Assembly: GCF_016904885.1 (NCBI RefSeq)
Contig: NZ_JADWYI010000001.1
Location: 2,852,001 to 2,916,000, forward strand
Direction of reading: 5' to 3'
DNA: 64,000 nucleotides
From: Archangium primigenium
GTDB taxonomy: Bacteria > Myxococcota > Myxococcia > Myxococcales > Myxococcaceae
A program made the translations under genes and the position numbers. Below the pieces are notes generated by a model, which ran no database searches, was not told the DNA's origin, and was given only the letters and a program-made list of their open reading frames with translations. Below, piece after piece: positions 2-39,492 of this stretch (within the stretch, counting starts at the first letter, position 1; each line of letters opens with the position of its first letter).

Positions 2-11023
<11,022 letters not shown>

Positions 11024-11053
11024 TCGTCGCGAACCTGTCCACGCAGGTGGACC

Positions 11054-11090
11054 GCGGAGCGCGTGAGAAGGGGTTCCTCATGCGCTCCGC
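11054..11090 (+). terminator. Strong hairpin after the adhesin-OmpA gene
   Basis: A perfect 9-bp inverted repeat (11054-11062 with 11082-11090) continues inward with one wobble and four more pairs, giving about 14 paired bases around a short loop. It lies 31 bp after the stop codon. There is no clear T-run, so intrinsic termination is likely but not certain. Confidence 0.6.
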
Positions 11091-11306
11091 GATGCCCGTC
11101 ACGCGAGTCAAGAGGTGTGATGCACCCACCACGGCGCACGGCTGCTCTGGTGGGGCTCTCGCGTAAGTGCCTGTGACGACTTGGCGATGCGACGGGGCGC
11201 TACAGGTTCGTAGCTCAGAACTTGCCAAAGAACGCGACTTGCTGAAGATGGTGTCCGCAGTGGCGCGCGCGGACTGCGGATGGCCCGCGCCGAAAGAAGG
11301 AAACAC

Positions 11307-12518
11307 ATGGACCAGTTCGAGCAGAACAAGCAGGCCGCCAAGATTCGTGTCATCGGCGTCGGGGGCGCTGGGTGCAACGCCGTCAACACGATGATCATGG
11401 CGAAGCTTGAGCGTGTGGACTTCATCGCCGCCAACACCGATGTGCAGGCGCTCGCGGCGAGCAAGGCCCCCATGCGGCTGCAGCTCGGACAGACGTTGAC
11501 CAAGGGGCTGGGGGCGGGTGCCAACCCGGAGATGGGCCGCGAGGCGGCGCTCGAGTCGCGCGATCAGATCGCCTCGATCATCGAGGGCGCGGACATGGTG
11601 TTCGTCACCGCGGGGATGGGCGGTGGCACGGGCACGGGCGCGGCGCCCATCATCGCGGACATCGCCAAGAGCCTGGGCTGCCTGACGGTGGGCGTGGTCA
11701 CCAAGCCCTTCCTCTTCGAGGGCAACAAGCGCCGCAAGCAGGCCGAGCAGGGGCTCGTGGAGCTCAAGGCCGCGGTGGACACCCTCATCACCATCCCCAA
11801 CCAGCGCCTGCTCACGCTGAGCAACGCGCCCATGCCGCTGCTGGAGACGTTCAAGCGCGCCGACGAGGTGCTGCTCAACGCCGTGCAGGGCATCTCCGAC
11901 CTCATCCAGTACCACGGCTACATCAACGTGGACTTCGCGGACGTGAAGACCATCATGAGCGACAAGGGCCTGGCGCTCATGGGCACCGGCCAGTCCACGG
12001 GAGACAAGCGCGCGCTGAGCGCCATGCAGCAGGCCATCTCCAGCCCGCTGCTCGAGGACATCTCCATCGACGGCGCCACGGGCCTGCTCATCAACATCAC
12101 CGGCGGCCGCGACATGACCCTCCAGGAGGTCAACGAGGCGCTCACGCTGGTGCACGACGCGGCGGACCCGGACGCGGAGATCATCTTCGGCTCGCTCATC
12201 GACGACAACATCCAGGACGAGGTGAAGATCACCATCATCGCCACGGGCTTCGTCTCGCGCGATGCCAAGCGCCAGCCGGCGCCGGTGGTGCAGGTGCCCG
12301 TGGTCACGCGGCCCCCGTCCATCAGCCTGTCCAACGCGCGCGAGGAAGTGGCCAGCCTGGTGCCCGCCAAGGCCGGCGCGCGCACGGTGGCTCCCGCCGA
12401 GAGCCGCTCGCTGACCGGGCGCACCGCGGTGGTGCGGGACGCGGCGCTGCCGCTGGACGAGGATCAGTTCGACATCCCGACGTTCCTGCGCCGTCAGGGC
12501 CAGACCGAGATGCCGTGA
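11307..12518 (+). CDS. ftsZ: Cell division protein FtsZ
   Basis: A tubulin-like GTPase that polymerises into the division ring at midcell. The 403-residue protein has the GTP-binding GGAGCN loop near residue 19, the tubulin signature GGGTGTG at 105-111, the synergy loop near [11 protein letters not shown], and a C-terminal conserved peptide (FDIPTFLRR, 388-396) that in other bacteria binds FtsA/ZipA-type partners. A variable Pro/Ala linker lies before that tail. The ATG at 11307 is preceded by GAAGGAAA at the right spacing; an upstream in-frame ATG at 11280 lacks such a site. It is unusual that no other dcw-cluster gene (ftsA, ftsQ, mur genes) is adjacent: an OmpA-type gene lies upstream and an unrelated gene converges from downstream. 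It could be the only ftsZ or a second copy. Confidence 0.95.
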
Positions 12519-12519
12519 G

Positions 12520-12897
12520 TCAGCGCCCGGGGAGGCGGGCCACGCCCGCCACCCGCGCATGACGTCCAGAGAGCGCGTCACTCCGCGACAGCAGCGTGTC
12601 CAGCTCGCGGTAGAGCGCGTCCACCTGGGCGGGCAGCCGGGGCGCGGGGACCACGCCCTCGCCGGACAGCAGCTCCACGAGCCCGCTCGCGCGCTGCAAG
12701 AGTTGCTGGGCGCGCAGCAGGGCCCGGCCCGCGCGGGTGCCCTGCGGCGTGAAGAGCGTGCCTCCCTGGTAGAGTGCCTCCACCGCCGCGCGGTTGGTGC
12801 CATGGCGCTCGGCCACGCGCGTCCGGTACAGCTCCAGCCGCCGCTCGAGGCGCGCGCCCTGGAGATCCACCACTCGTCCTGTCATGGGAGGCTTCAC
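12520..12897 (-). CDS. Small conserved-looking protein of unknown function
   Basis: A 125-residue protein, Leu-, Ala- and Arg-rich and mostly helical by composition, with no motif I recognise. It has no signal peptide or membrane segment. Its stop codon lies 1 bp from the ftsZ stop in convergent orientation. The start is either GTG at 12897 or ATG at 12885 (MTGRVVDLQG); neither has a strong Shine-Dalgarno. It is divergent to the biotin carboxylase gene. It fills the only gap between ftsZ and the next operon and shows the same third-position G/C bias as its neighbours, which supports it being real. Confidence 0.55.
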   Translation of the reverse strand: MKPPMTGRVVDLQGARLERRLELYRTRVAERHGTNRAAVEALYQGGTLFTPQGTRAGRALLRAQQLLQRASGLVELLSGEGVVPAPRLPAQVDALYRELDTLLSRSDALSGRHARVAGVARLPGR

Positions 12898-12960
12898 GGC
12901 CCGGAACCTACGCCATTTCCCTACATGGTCGCAACTTCCCGGTCCGGGGACGTTGGCTCC

Positions 12961-12989
12961 TTGTCAGTGGGGGAGGGGGCGTCTAGGGT
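12961..12989 (+). promoter_or_regulatory. Possible promoter of the biotin carboxylase operon
   Basis: TTGTCA (12961-12966) and TAGGGT (12984-12989) are separated by 17 bp, with the -10 end about 31 bp before the start codon of the downstream gene. The -35 matches consensus at five of six positions; the -10 match is weak. Confidence 0.4.
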
Positions 12990-13020
12990 GGCCGACCGCC
13001 CCGAGCGAGGAGGCGCGGTC

Positions 13021-14370
13021 ATGTTCAAGAAGCTGCTCATCGCCAACCGGGGAGAGATCGCCCGCCGCATCCAGACGGTGGCCCGGGGCATGGGCCTGGC
13101 CACGGTGGCCGTGTACTCGGACGCGGACGCGGGGCTGCCCTTCGTGCGCGAGGCGGACGAGGCGGTGCGGCTCGGTCCGGCCCCGCCCCGGGACAGCTAC
13201 CTGAATGTCGCGGCGCTCCTGGAGGCGGCGCGGGCCACGGGGGCGGACGCGGTGCACCCGGGGTACGGCTTCGTGTCGGAGAGCGCCGGGTTCGCCCGGG
13301 TGTGCCAGGACGCGGGGCTCGTGTTCGTGGGGCCTCCCGCCGAGGCCATGGAGCGGATGAAGGACAAGAGCCGGGCGCGTCAGCTCGTGGCCGCCGCGGG
13401 CGTGCCCGTGGTGCCGGGCAGCGAGGGCCTGGTGCCGGACGTGGACGCCGCGCGCGAGGCCGCCGAGCGCATCGGCTATCCGGTGCTGTGCAAGGCGGCC
13501 GGGGGCGGGGGCGGTATCGGCATGGCCGTGGCCCAGACGCCCGCCGAGCTGGCGAAGGTCTTCCGCCAGTGCGCGGATCGGGCCCGGGCGGCCTTCGGGC
13601 GGGACGGCCTCTACCTGGAGCGCTACTTCCCGGCGCCGCGCCACATCGAGGTGCAGATCCTCGGAGACCACCACGGCCACCTCCTGCACGTGCTGGAGCG
13701 GGAGTGCTCCCTTCAGCGCCGGCATCAGAAGGTGGTGGAGGAGGCCCCCTCGCCCCTGTTCGCGGACGTGGGAGGGGAGGCGCTGGCGGAGCGGCTCTTC
13801 CCGGCGGCGCTCGCCGCGGCGCGGGCCTTCGGCTACGCCAACGCGGGCACGGTGGAGTTCCTCTGCGCGGACGGGGCGTTCTACTTCATCGAGATGAACG
13901 CGCGGCTGCAGGTGGAGCACCCGGTGACGGAGGCGACCACGGGGTTGGATCTCATCGCCTGGCAGCTGCGCATCGCCGCGGGCGAGCGGCTCACGGTGCG
14001 CCAGGAGGACGTGCGGCGGCGGGGCGTGGCGCTGGAGTTCCGCATCTACGCGGAGGATCCGGTGCGCTTCTTGCCCTCGCCGGGTCCGCTGCGCGTGTTC
14101 CAGGGCCCCACGGGCGAGGGCGTGCGCCTGGACGCGGGCTACGCGGAGGGAGACATCGTCACGCCTCACTACGATCCGATGATCGCCAAGCTCATCGTCT
14201 CGGGCGCCACGCGCGCGGAGGCCATCGCGCGGGCGATCCGGGCACTCGAGGACTTCCGGGTCGAGGGACTCAAGACGAACATCCCCCTGCACCTGCGCAT
14301 CCTGCGCGATCCGGTGTTCCAGGCGGGGACGTTGAACACGCGCTTCCTCGAGCAGCACGCGAGGCCGTGA
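13021..14370 (+). CDS. Biotin carboxylase subunit of an acyl-CoA carboxylase
   Basis: An ATP-dependent enzyme that carboxylates biotin on a carrier protein. The 449-residue length is typical of stand-alone AccC-type subunits. Visible features are the N-terminal MFKKLLIANRGEIA, the Gly-rich ATP-grasp loop GGGGGIG near residue 161, HxEVQ within the ATP-grasp core, and the catalytic EMNARLQVEHPVTE at 291-304. GAGGAGG sits about 10 bp before the ATG. It is followed by a separate biotin carrier gene and a crotonase, in an operon. No carboxyltransferase subunit is encoded nearby, so the acyl substrate (acetyl-, propionyl- or another CoA) cannot be assigned. Confidence 0.93.
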   Translation: MFKKLLIANRGEIARRIQTVARGMGLATVAVYSDADAGLPFVREADEAVRLGPAPPRDSYLNVAALLEAARATGADAVHPGYGFVSESAGFARVCQDAGLVFVGPPAEAMERMKDKSRARQLVAAAGVPVVPGSEGLVPDVDAAREAAERIGYPVLCKAAGGGGGIGMAVAQTPAELAKVFRQCADRARAAFGRDGLYLERYFPAPRHIEVQILGDHHGHLLHVLERECSLQRRHQKVVEEAPSPLFADVGGEALAERLFPAALAAARAFGYANAGTVEFLCADGAFYFIEMNARLQVEHPVTEATTGLDLIAWQLRIAAGERLTVRQEDVRRRGVALEFRIYAEDPVRFLPSPGPLRVFQGPTGEGVRLDAGYAEGDIVTPHYDPMIAKLIVSGATRAEAIARAIRALEDFRVEGLKTNIPLHLRILRDPVFQAGTLNTRFLEQHARP

Positions 14371-36128: not shown

Positions 36129-37046
36129 ATGCGCCACCTGTCCGCCTGTCTGGGATTGCTCTTGTGCGCCGCGTGCGTGGGGTCGGAGGACAGACCCTCG
36201 AACGTGAAGGACTTGCGTGTGCTCGCGGTGCGGCTGGAGCCGCCGGAAGTCTTCGCCGACACGTGCTCCACGGACCCCGCCGCCTTGCTGCCCGCGCTGT
36301 CGCGTCCGCTGCGCTTCACCGCGCTCATTCCGGACCCCGCGGGGGAGGGCCGGGATTTGGACTACGTCCTGACCACCTGCGCCACCACCACCTCCGCGCT
36401 GTGCGAGGGCGAGCAGGTGGAGCTGGCGCGGGGCGTGACGCGGGGCGGAGAGCTGACGGTGGAGCTGTCGCCGGGGCCGGGCCTGGCCCGGTTCCAGGAC
36501 GGCTCCTTCGTGGCGCAGCGCGTGCTCGAGGAGGACGCCTACCGGGGCCTGGGGGGCATCTGGCTGCCCTTGCAGCTCGAGGTGTCGGGCGGGAGCGAGC
36601 GGGTCTACGCGCGCAAGCTGATGGTCTACAACTGCCCCCTGGTGCCGGGCATGGTGGTCAACGTCCAGCCGGAGCTGGGCAGCCTGGTGCTGGAGGGGGC
36701 GCCCTGGTTCGAGGGCGTGCCGCGCGAGCTGTCGGGGCCGGGCCCCTTCCGGGTGGATCCCGAGGACTTCTCCGCGCGCCAGGAGGACTACGTGGTGCCC
36801 TCGTTCGAGCTCAAGCCCGTGCAGCTGCGCGAGTCCTGGGAGCTGGCCTGGTTCAGCACCCTGGGCGGGTTCTCGCCCAACCAGACGGGCGGCGCGGACC
36901 TGGGCGGTGGCGAGGGCCGGCACCAGGTGGAGTGGAGCCCCCCGAGCGGTGTCTCCGGGCCCCAGGACGTCTTGTTCTGGGTCGTCGCGCGGGACGGACG
37001 CGGGGGCCAGACGTGGGTGACCCGCTCGGCGCGCTACACGCCCTGA
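36129..37046 (+). CDS. Lipoprotein encoded with the TonB receptor
   Basis: A 305-residue lipoprotein (signal peptide with LLCAAC, Cys at 16) rich in beta-type sequence and with several further Cys. No known domain is recognised. Its ATG lies 2 bp after the receptor stop, so the two are an operon, and it is likely a periplasmic or surface partner of that receptor, in the way SusD-type proteins partner SusC, although no similarity to SusD is visible. Confidence 0.8.
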   Translation: MRHLSACLGLLLCAACVGSEDRPSNVKDLRVLAVRLEPPEVFADTCSTDPAALLPALSRPLRFTALIPDPAGEGRDLDYVLTTCATTTSALCEGEQVELARGVTRGGELTVELSPGPGLARFQDGSFVAQRVLEEDAYRGLGGIWLPLQLEVSGGSERVYARKLMVYNCPLVPGMVVNVQPELGSLVLEGAPWFEGVPRELSGPGPFRVDPEDFSARQEDYVVPSFELKPVQLRESWELAWFSTLGGFSPNQTGGADLGGGEGRHQVEWSPPSGVSGPQDVLFWVVARDGRGGQTWVTRSARYTP

Positions 37047-37080
37047 GTTGACCGGGAATTCACAGTTCACCTCCCTGGGG

Positions 37081-37141
37081 GGTAATGGAGGGCTTTCCAG
37101 TCCAAGTTGTACTGTCCTTTTCGTCGCTACCCCTGGCGGCA
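37081..37141 (+). promoter_or_regulatory. Conserved upstream element of peptide gene 1
   Basis: This contains GGAGGG, 17 bases, then TACTGTC (37110-37116) and a C/G-rich tail with TTTTCG. TACTGTC lies exactly 52 bases before the start codon, as in the two paralogues downstream. The GGAGG...TGTC layout could be an ECF-type sigma promoter. Conservation is at the DNA level, because the third copy has an in-frame stop before its gene. Confidence 0.55.
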
Positions 37142-37161
37142 CGAAAGGACGGATTGAACCC

Positions 37162-37365
37162 ATGAAGAACGACATGAAGCAGGCCAAGCTCCGCCTCAAC
37201 AAGGAGACGGTGCGCAACCTGTCCGACGAGAGCCTGGGTCACGTCGCGGGCGGCAATGGAGATTCGGCGGGCGTCATCTGCGTCTTCTCCATCCTGCTCA
37301 TCTGTGGTGACTCCATCGTCTGCTCGGTGCTCGCCGGCTCCTGCAACAACGACAACGGCGGGTGA
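37162..37365 (+). CDS. Double-glycine precursor peptide 1 (lanthipeptide-like)
   Basis: A 67-residue peptide. The leader (1-31) has LRLNKETVRNLSDESL and ends in AGG at 29-31, like class I lanthipeptide/GG-leader precursors of Bacteroidetes and myxobacteria. The 36-residue core is hydrophobic, with four Cys (40, 48, 54, 61) and Ser at 35, 43, 51, 55 and 60. Every Cys has a Ser upstream within six residues (S-x4-C, S-x4-C, S-x2-C, S-x5-C), which suits lanthionine ring formation. Two near-identical genes follow. No LanB/C, C39-peptidase transporter or other maturation gene is in the window. Disulfide-stabilised bacteriocin or signal peptide is an alternative. Confidence 0.8.
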   Translation: MKNDMKQAKLRLNKETVRNLSDESLGHVAGGNGDSAGVICVFSILLICGDSIVCSVLAGSCNNDNGG

Positions 37366-37521
37366 GGCTTCCGCCCCCGTTCCCGTCACGCCTCCGCTCT
37401 CATCCACGCCACGGTCCGGCTCCGTCTGGGATTGTCCCAGGGAGACCGGACCGTGGTGCTTTTAGGCTTTGTCTGTCTGTCTGGAATGGCGATGGGCAGT
37501 GCACAATCGGCCACCCCGGGG

Positions 37522-37582
37522 GGTGATGGAGGGCACGCCAGTGAGAGTTGTACTGTCTTTTTCGCCGCCACTCCTGACGGCC
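37522..37582 (+). promoter_or_regulatory. Conserved upstream element of peptide gene 2
   Basis: The best-matching partner of the element before gene 1: GATGGAGGGC, CCAGT, GTTGTACTGTC and TTTTTCGCCGCCACTCCTGA in the same order. TACTGTC (37551-37557) is again 52 bases before the ATG. Confidence 0.55.
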
Positions 37583-37602
37583 AATCCAAGGACACTCCCC
37601 CC

Positions 37603-37806
37603 ATGAAGACCGACAAGGCGCAGAAGAAGCTCAGCCTCAACAAGGAGACCCTGCGCAACCTGTCCGACGAGAGCCTGGATCAGGTGGCCGGCGGTAACGG
37701 TGACTCCGCGGGCGTCATCTGCCTCTTCTCCATCCTCATCATCTGTGGTGACTCCATCGTCTGCTCGGTGCTCGCCGGCTCCTGCAACAACGAGAACGGC
37801 GGGTAG
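37603..37806 (+). CDS. Double-glycine precursor peptide 2 (lanthipeptide-like)
   Basis: A 67-residue paralogue of the upstream peptide. The leader differs slightly (MKTDKAQKKLSLNKETLRNL, then SDESLDQVAGG). The core keeps all four Cys and all five Ser, with only conservative changes (for example Leu for Val at 41, Ile for Leu at 46, Glu for Asp at 64). AAGGA lies about 12 bases before the ATG. Core conservation with leader drift suggests selection on the mature product. Confidence 0.8.
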   Translation: MKTDKAQKKLSLNKETLRNLSDESLDQVAGGNGDSAGVICLFSILIICGDSIVCSVLAGSCNNENGG

Positions 37807-38122
37807 TCCAGACGGTCATGACAGGGCCTGGAGGGCATCGCCCCGGGAGGTGATGTCCTCGGGCCACGACAAGACCCACGCTTCGCGTTTTTCGCGCCGC
37901 CGTGTCCACACCCCCTCCGGGCCCGAGCCCCGAGTGGATGGACACCGCGGCGCTTGTCGTTCCGGATCTCCGCACAATGACTTTCATGTCGGGAAGACAC
38001 CGCACGGGATACGTCAGGACAACACAGTCCACGGCCCTCGGGTGCGATGGATGGGGTGGATGGCCGTCCGTACTGTCTGTTTCGCCGCCACTCCCGACGG
38101 CCCGTAAGAACGGATGACGCCC
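37807..38122. other. 316-bp spacer between peptide genes 2 and 3
   Basis: No gene is seen. It contains a small hairpin (CGCG-TTTTT-CGCG, 37882-37894) and a 7-bp inverted repeat (37902-37908 with 37939-37945). Its last 81 bases hold the upstream element of gene 3. It is longer than the 237-bp spacer between genes 1 and 2. Confidence 0.5.
38042..38102 (+). promoter_or_regulatory. Conserved upstream element of peptide gene 3
   Basis: This keeps TACTGTC (38071-38077), TTTCGCCGCCACTCCCGACG and the 52-base distance to the ATG. The part upstream of TACTGTC is more diverged (GATGGATGG in place of GATGGAGGG). A TAA in frame before the gene shows this block is not coding. Confidence 0.5.
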
Positions 38123-38326
38123 ATGAAGACCGACAAGGCCCAGAAGAAGCTCAGCCTCAACAAGGAGACCCTGCGCAACCTGTCCGACGAGAGTCTGGAT
38201 CAGGTGGCCGGCGGCAATGGTGACTCGGCGGGTGTCATCTGCGTCTTCTCCGTGCTGCTCATCTGCGGCGACTCCATCATCTGCTCGGTGCTCGCCGGCT
38301 CCTGCAACAACGAGAACGGCAGCTAG
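38123..38326 (+). CDS. Double-glycine precursor peptide 3 (lanthipeptide-like)
   Basis: A third 67-residue paralogue. The leader is identical to peptide 2 through the AGG motif. The core differs from peptide 2 at only a few positions (VFSVLL for LFSILI, SIIC for SIVC, final Ser for Gly), and all Cys and Ser of the pattern are kept. A possible earlier start at 38114 would add three residues. It is convergent with the glycerate kinase gene, which ends the cluster. Confidence 0.8.
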   Translation: MKTDKAQKKLSLNKETLRNLSDESLDQVAGGNGDSAGVICVFSVLLICGDSIICSVLAGSCNNENGS

Positions 38327-38394
38327 TCCCCATCCCCGAGAACGTCTGTCCTTGAATTCGTCCCGGACACCGGCGGCCGTCTGGCTTCCGGTGT

Positions 38395-39492
38395 TCAGGC
38401 CCGTGTGGCCCAGTCCCGGCCCACCTGGCGCAGCGCCTCCGCGGGAGGCCGTCCTGCGGGCCCCCGGGTGGAGACCTCGAGCACCTCGTCGAACGGAGCG
38501 TCCCCGGTCCTCGCGTCGGGAGCCACCTGTCCGGCGAACAGCACCGTGCGCTTGCCCAGGGTGCGTGCCTCCCGGGCCAGGGCGCCGGGCCCCTTGCCCA
38601 GGGCGGTCTGCCGATCGAAGCGCCCCTCTCCGGTGAGCACGGCCTCCACGGCGGCGATCCGCTCCCGCAGCCGCAGGGTGCGCGCCACCAGCTCATAGCC
38701 CGACACGATCCGCCCGTGGGTGAGCGCCCGCAGGCCGTAGCCGAAGCCGCCCGCCGCGCCCGTGCCCTCCTCCTGGGCGAGCCTGGGGTCGAGGCAGTCG
38801 GCCAGGTGCGTCAAGGCCGCCTCCAACTCCTCCACGGCCGCCGCGTCCGCGCCCTTCTGGGGACCGAAGAGTCGGGCGGCGCCCTCGGGGCCGAGCAGGG
38901 GCGCGGTGACATCCGACGCCACCCACCACTCCACGTGCTCCAGCGCCGGGTGCCGGGCGCTCGCGTCCACCCGGGCGAGCCGCTGGAGCGCGGCGCCGCC
39001 GGGGGGCAGGGGGTGGCCGCGCGCATCCAGGAAGCGCCAGCCGAGCGCCGAGAGCGCGCCCGTCCCCCCGTCCGTGGTGGCGCTGCCGCCCAGGCCGAGG
39101 ATGAGCCGACGACACCCGCGTTCCAGGGCGTCGCGGAGGAGCTCGCCGGTGCCGTGGGTGGAGGTGCGCCGGGCATCCCGGGCCTCCGGGGCGAGCAGGG
39201 ACAGCCCCGAGGCGGCCGCCATCTCGATGACCGCCGTGTGTCCCCCGTCCAACAGCCCGTAGGTGGCGGAGACGGGCGCGCCGAGCGGCCCCGTGACGGT
39301 GCGCACCACCCGCTCGCCGCCCACCCCCGCGAGCAGCGCGTCCACCGTGCCCGGACCGCCATCCGCGAGCGGCGCCACGTCCAGCTCCACGCCGGGCGCG
39401 CCCTCCCGCAGGCCCTCGGCGAGCGCCTGGGCCGCCTGGGTGGCGGTGAGGGTGCCCTTGAACTCCTGGGGGGCCACGAGCCAGCGCGCCAT
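38395..39492 (-). CDS. Glycerate kinase (GarK/GlxK family)
   Basis: A 365-residue kinase phosphorylating glycerate. Family motifs are MARWLVAPQEFKGTLTA, APLADGGPGTVDALL, GLGGSATTDGGTGAL and VLTGEGRFDRQTALGKGP, with the length typical of the family. GGAGG lies four bases before the ATG. Gene order with YkgJ-like and RlmI genes on the same strand suggests a loose operon, with 8 bp between this start and the upstream gene's stop. Regulation was not visible. Confidence 0.93.
   Translation of the reverse strand: MARWLVAPQEFKGTLTATQAAQALAEGLREGAPGVELDVAPLADGGPGTVDALLAGVGGERVVRTVTGPLGAPVSATYGLLDGGHTAVIEMAAASGLSLLAPEARDARRTSTHGTGELLRDALERGCRRLILGLGGSATTDGGTGALSALGWRFLDARGHPLPPGGAALQRLARVDASARHPALEHVEWWVASDVTAPLLGPEGAARLFGPQKGADAAAVEELEAALTHLADCLDPRLAQEEGTGAAGGFGYGLRALTHGRIVSGYELVARTLRLRERIAAVEAVLTGEGRFDRQTALGKGPGALAREARTLGKRTVLFAGQVAPDARTGDAPFDEVLEVSTRGPAGRPPAEALRQVGRDWATRA

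What the first reader, a model, noticed from the sequence alone, without database searches (positions are those of the whole stretch)
37081..38326. Three tandem orphan double-glycine peptides with a Ser-Cys alternation: candidate new lanthipeptide or bacteriocin family
Three 67-residue genes encode near-identical cores behind an L-x-L-x-K-E-T leader ending in AGG. Each of the four core Cys has a Ser 3-6 residues upstream (S35-C40, S43-C48, S51-C54, S55-C61), the spacing that lanthionine synthetases use. The core is strongly hydrophobic, has no Thr, and ends in a polar CNN(D/E)NG(G/S) tail. No synthetase, peptidase-transporter or immunity gene is in the window, so maturation enzymes must act in trans or the product is a different kind of peptide. 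Retained core and drifting leader suggest selection on the product.
Basis: partly seen in the sequence, partly recalled or inferred. Interest (0 to 1): 0.85.

Follow-up and report, generated by a model that had tools for sequence, protein, structure and literature searches.

The report
Unlinked precursors for a lanthipeptide cluster
Three small tandem genes in this myxobacterium-like genome encode near-identical peptides that are very probably turned into ring-bearing lanthipeptides by a standard enzyme cluster millions of bases away, so the product class is known but its core sequence appears new and its precursor genes are unusually scattered.

Summary
Three 67-codon genes lie at 37162-37365, 37603-37806 and 38123-38326 (+), each with an LxLxKET leader ending in GG and a conserved Ser/Cys-rich hydrophobic core. 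The leader scores above NCBI's curated cut-off for class I lanthipeptides. The genes are not orphans of the genome. Four more paralogues exist, and one sits in a complete class I cluster about 5.3 Mb along the contig: LanB dehydratase, LanC cyclase with its zinc ligands, and a C39 peptidase-transporter. In all seven paralogues the same four Ser/Thr and four Cys of the core are kept, while the fifth Ser (S60) varies, which supports four lanthionine rings. The cluster is orthologous in a congener whose core has diverged. In three congeners the two genes flanking the window trio abut, so the trio was gained here or lost there. Best reading: one LanBC/C39 cluster modifies and exports seven nearly identical precursors from four loci, prochlorosin-like in layout but class I and not diversified. 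LanBC clusters with C39 transporters were already predicted in Cystobacter fuscus. It is a new member of a known class; modification and activity are untested.

The parts
37162..37365 (+). precursor peptide gene 1 (67 aa; leader 1-31 ending AGG, core 32-67 NGDSAGVICVFSILLICGDSIVCSVLAGSCNNDNGG)
   Evidence: ORF; lant_leader_L1a 32.2 bits, cut-off 22; 84 and 82% aa identity to copies 2 and 3, 72% to the LanBC-cluster precursor
37603..37806 (+). precursor peptide gene 2 (67 aa)
   Evidence: ORF; lant_leader_L1a 40.0 bits; 84.9% DNA identity to the cluster precursor
38123..38326 (+). precursor peptide gene 3 (67 aa)
   Evidence: ORF; lant_leader_L1a 39.9 bits; 87.5% DNA identity to the cluster precursor
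37070..37161 (+). 5' region of gene 1, part of the repeated unit; contains a possible small dyad (function untested)
   Evidence: blastn block 37070-37363 aligned with 37511-37804; hairpin count inconclusive
37511..37602 (+). 5' region of gene 2, part of the repeated unit
   Evidence: blastn, alignment A2
38070..38122 (+). 5' region of gene 3, part of the repeated unit
   Evidence: blastn block 37550-37809 aligned with 38070-38329
36129..37046 (+). upstream neighbour: 305-aa protein after a TonB-receptor-like gene (not part of the peptide system; marks the site)
   Evidence: conserved in 8 relatives; in G032-G034 it abuts the downstream neighbour with no precursor genes between
38395..39492 (-). 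downstream neighbour: glycerate-kinase-like gene, named from general knowledge, not from a family search (marks the site)
   Evidence: 77-80% identical in G032-G034, abutting the 305-aa gene

Best explanation
The three genes are unlinked precursor genes (LanA) of a class I lanthipeptide system. Their products are dehydrated at Ser by the LanB at genome C1:8159.0-8162.3 kb and cyclised by the neighbouring LanC into four Ser-Cys lanthionine rings. The conserved LxLxKET leader, shared with the cluster's own precursor, would be the recognition element. The C39 peptidase domain of the cluster's ABC transporter then cuts after GG and exports a 36-residue hydrophobic peptide with a polar CNN(D/E)NG tail. 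Six of the seven precursors, at three loci, are copies set apart from the cluster. Shown: sequence relationships, cluster content, conserved ring residues. Inferred: modification in trans, ring topology, cleavage, export and any activity.
For: All three match lant_leader_L1a above cut-off. Seven paralogues occur in the genome, one at C1:8154293 in a cluster with a C39/ABC transporter (Peptidase_C39 99.6 bits, ABC_membrane 123, ABC_tran 121.1), LANC_like (124.5 bits) and Lant_dehydr_N plus Lant_dehydr_C (549 and 235.4 bits). LanC keeps the AHG, AWCYG and CHG motifs that align with NisC. LanB matches solved class I dehydratases including NisB. Four Ser/Thr and four Cys are kept in all seven cores while S60 varies as S/A/F, and the cluster's own core has exactly 4 Ser and 4 Cys. 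The G032 cluster is orthologous (transporter 84%, LanC 79%, LanB 76%, same flanking genes) with its own leader-matched precursor in it. The core is more constrained than the leader.
Against: No expression or mass data exist. The genome also holds a second LanB, three more LanC-like places and two other strong C39 peptidase places, so the assignment to this LanBC rests on the near-identical paralogue, not on a test. No dedicated immunity gene was recognised. G033 and G034 keep LanB and LanC without the transporter or a precursor at that site, so the enzymes may also serve other substrates.
Confidence: 0.85

Rival explanations
1. The peptides are modified by a different enzyme of the same genome, the stand-alone LanB at C1:3755.6 kb or one of the other LanC-domain loci (6050, 6180 or 8550 kb), and only resemble the LanBC-cluster precursor by descent.
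For: A second full-length LanB (Lant_dehydr_N 542.9 bits) and three further LanC-like places exist, two of them near other C39 peptidase places.
Against: The precursor-like ORF beside the 6180-kb LanC-like gene has a different leader spacing and an unrelated core (L022). No leader-like small ORF was found within the 16 kb around the stand-alone LanB. A paralogue with 79-90% identical DNA sits in the LanBC cluster.
Confidence: 0.07
2. The trio is an unmodified double-glycine bacteriocin or signal peptide set, exported by a C39 transporter, with disulfides instead of lanthionines.
For: GG leaders are shared by unmodified peptides. Four Cys could form two disulfides. Weak sub-cut-off matches to bacteriocin leader models exist.
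Against: The only leader model above cut-off is the class I lanthipeptide one. The cluster copy lies with LanB and LanC. Four Ser/Thr positions are as constant as the four Cys while S60 varies, which disulfides would not require.
Confidence: 0.04
3. The window copies are non-functional duplicates (silent or decaying).
For: The trio is absent from three congeners. The cluster's own precursor would be enough to make the product.
Against: All seven frames are intact. Pooled core pN/pS is 0.29 and every ring residue is retained. The 5' regions are copied with the genes.
Confidence: 0.07

Closest known systems
Class I LanBC clusters with a C39 LanT and a GG precursor in Cystobacter fuscus DSM 2262 and Corallococcus coralloides DSM 2259 (PMC3951391); salivaricin is named there as the earlier example
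   Same: Double-glycine precursor, LanB, LanC and a C39 transporter; also myxobacteria
   Different: The C. fuscus precursor described there has eight Cys; here the core has four Cys and four paired Ser/Thr. The passages read mention no remote copies of the precursor
NCBIfam NF038153 lant_leader_L1a (class I lanthipeptide leader)
   Same: All three leaders match above the curated cut-off
   Different: The model covers the leader only; the core has no family match
Prochlorosins / synechococsins (class II, ProcM/SyncM)
   Same: Precursor genes scattered over the genome, some as single genes away from the synthetase (PMC10783134)
   Different: LanM enzyme and Nif11 leader there, with many precursors per enzyme (79 for SyncM); here class I enzymes and seven near-identical cores
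Nisin-type class I lantibiotics (NisB/NisC)
   Same: LanB and LanC homologous to NisB and NisC
   Different: Leader ends in GG; C39 export peptidase; no immunity genes identified

Membership tests
Class I lanthipeptide | LanB with N-terminal and C-terminal (elimination) dehydratase domains, encoded with a matching precursor | tested here: met
   Lant_dehydr_N and Lant_dehydr_C over cut-off, about 4.6 kb from a paralogous precursor
Class I lanthipeptide | Separate zinc-dependent LanC cyclase | tested here: met
   LANC_like 124.5 bits; AHG, AWCYG and CHG motifs align with NisC; zinc binding itself not testable here
Class I lanthipeptide | Precursor with class I leader and Ser/Thr plus Cys in the core | tested here: met
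   lant_leader_L1a over cut-off; four Ser/Thr and four Cys kept in all seven
Class I lanthipeptide | Lanthionine rings in the product | not testable with these tools
   needs mass spectrometry; predicted -4 H2O masses
Class I lanthipeptide | Window precursors are substrates of this LanBC in trans | not testable with these tools
   inferred from leader and core identity with the cluster precursor
GG-leader peptides matured by C39 ABC transporters | GG cleavage site and a C39 peptidase-transporter | tested here: met
   GG invariant; Peptidase_C39 99.6 bits in the cluster transporter
Prochlorosin-like system | Class II LanM with Nif11-type leader and many diverse cores | tested here: not met
   class I leader model, LanB/LanC beside the paralogue, cores near-identical; only the scattered layout is shared

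The most novel reading that the evidence does not exclude
A class I LanBC cluster that serves a dispersed set of seven nearly identical, non-diversified precursors: either dosage amplification of one product by scattering its precursor gene, or a set of closely related peptides acting as a mixture, possibly expressed at different times.
Probability: 0.45. Interest if true: 0.6.

Novelty: new member of a known kind. Interest (0 to 1): 0.45.

Why it matters
Cluster-based mining would list this system with one precursor and could miss six of its seven. If the LanBC acts in trans on precursors megabases away, class I lanthipeptide inventories of large myxobacterial genomes are undercounts, and the near-identical cores are a ready natural variant set for testing what the enzymes tolerate and why the gene was multiplied.

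Tried and rejected
A scan of named genomes with the precursor profile found no relative; a second with LanB gave only more distant clusters with other cores. The shared dyad upstream of the precursors was tested as a hairpin: 83.7% of cells paired (14 of 500 shuffles as high), but the covariation score was reached by 65 of 500 shuffles, and the plain pattern CCGYC-N6-GACGG is not clearly enriched in the window (6 found, 2.7 expected), so it is left unproven. The empty-site test for the other two remote loci failed: no clear orthologue of the neighbours used was found in congeners. The gene tree of the paralogues is unresolved, so the order and direction of duplication are not claimed. A literature search for class I lanthipeptides with remote precursors found none, but covers open-access papers only.

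Full report
Observation. They form a tandem repeat whose homologous unit includes the region upstream of the start codon. Each encodes 67 residues: a leader of 31 residues ending in GG and a core of 36. Random shuffles of the core rarely (0.9%) give every Cys its own Ser 3-6 residues upstream.

What it is. NCBIfam's class I lanthipeptide leader model lant_leader_L1a matches all three above its cut-off; Pfam matches nothing. The window lies at C1:2852001-2916000 of a 9.49-Mb genome, which holds four further paralogues: two at 1338 kb, one at 1732 kb and one at 8154 kb. The copy at 8154 kb stands in a compact cluster (locus L023): precursor (6293-6487, +), a C39 peptidase/ABC transporter (6662-8911, -), a small protein without family match (within 8930-9676, -), LanC (9779-11023, +) and LanB (11039-14329, +). 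That is about 5.3 Mb from the window along the contig, or about 4.2 Mb the other way if the chromosome is circular. LanC keeps the residues that align with the zinc-site motifs of NisC (their role is established knowledge of NisC). LanB has both dehydratase domains and resembles solved class I dehydratases including NisB. A second LanB and three other LanC-like places exist elsewhere in the genome, none in the window.

Ring residues. Across all seven cores, position 35 is Ser or Thr, positions 43, 51 and 55 are Ser and positions 40, 48, 54 and 61 are Cys, while S60 becomes Ala or Phe in some. The cluster's own core has exactly four Ser and four Cys. The pairing itself is inferred.

Relatives. 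Of 96 genomes of the family and 195 of the phylum, only this genome has the core at high similarity. Its congener G032 has an orthologous cluster in the same chromosomal context (transporter 84%, LanC 79%, LanB 76% identity) with a diverged precursor (...VAGG-DGNGSLLLLCSLIAVCGDSALLGNCSFVCGGGK). G033 and G034 keep LanB and LanC there but not the transporter or a recognisable precursor. G006 has a relative of the core beside its LanB with the GG site missing. At the window site the two flanking genes abut in G032, G033 and G034 (aligned ends 14-42 bp apart) with nothing between them, so the trio was either gained here or lost there; presence of the core only in this genome makes gain likelier (inference).

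Selection. Pooled over all pairs, pN/pS is 0.29 in the core and 0.58 in the leader. The counts are small and the pairs are not independent.

Mechanism. The most likely mechanism is class I maturation in trans: leader recognition, glutamyl-tRNA-dependent dehydration of Ser by LanB, Cys addition by LanC, then GG cleavage and export by the C39 transporter. Supported by sequence: leader family, enzymes, conserved ring residues. Inferred: recognition of the remote copies, ring topology, export and biological activity, for which there is no evidence here. The mature peptide would be very hydrophobic with a polar Asn/Gly tail.

Comparison with known systems. LanBC clusters with C39 transporters and GG precursors were predicted in Cystobacter fuscus DSM 2262 and Corallococcus coralloides (PMC3951391). 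Scattered precursor genes are described for prochlorosins (PMC10783134), which are class II and far more numerous per enzyme. The present system combines a class I cluster with scattered, near-identical precursors. I found no description of that combination, but the search covered open-access papers only. It is therefore filed as a new member of a known kind with an unusual gene layout.

Organism. No name is attached to the genome. The relatives look myxobacterial, and the genus is probably Cystobacter or a close one; this is my inference from genome sizes and gene content, not a tool result.

Noticed in passing
G000:C1:3755577-3758783 (L026:7565-10777): A second full-length LanB stands alone downstream of what look like cell-shape genes, with no LanC and no leader-like precursor within the 16 kb read; its substrate is unknown.
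   Followed up: partly
L155:8750-9793, L156:8837-9781, L154:12249-13193: In congeners the lanBC region is flanked by a predicted secreted protein with FNGLAFNGLAFNGL repeats and a Cys-rich C-terminus.
   Followed up: no
L031, L032, L038, L039, L040 (G032-G034): A very similar leader (ETIRNLSDExLxQVAGG) precedes quite different cores (Arg/Asp-rich, or Gly-Arg repeats), some a few kb from another LanB, suggesting leader reuse across several peptide types in this genus.
   Followed up: partly
L157:7126 (G006): A relative of the core lies beside LanB but its leader has lost the GG cleavage site (RNKAGDGDS...), so it may be decaying or cut elsewhere.
   Followed up: partly
L023:8930-9676 (-): A small protein without family match, with a hydrophobic stretch, lies between the C39 transporter and LanC and is conserved with the transporter (67% in G032; both missing in G033/G034); perhaps an export partner or an immunity protein.
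   Followed up: partly
window 37565-37580 and 38085-38100, and equivalents upstream of the other precursors: A short dyad like CCGYC-N6-GACGG sits a few tens of nt before the start codon of most copies; a shared operator or 5' hairpin is possible but not shown.
   Followed up: partly
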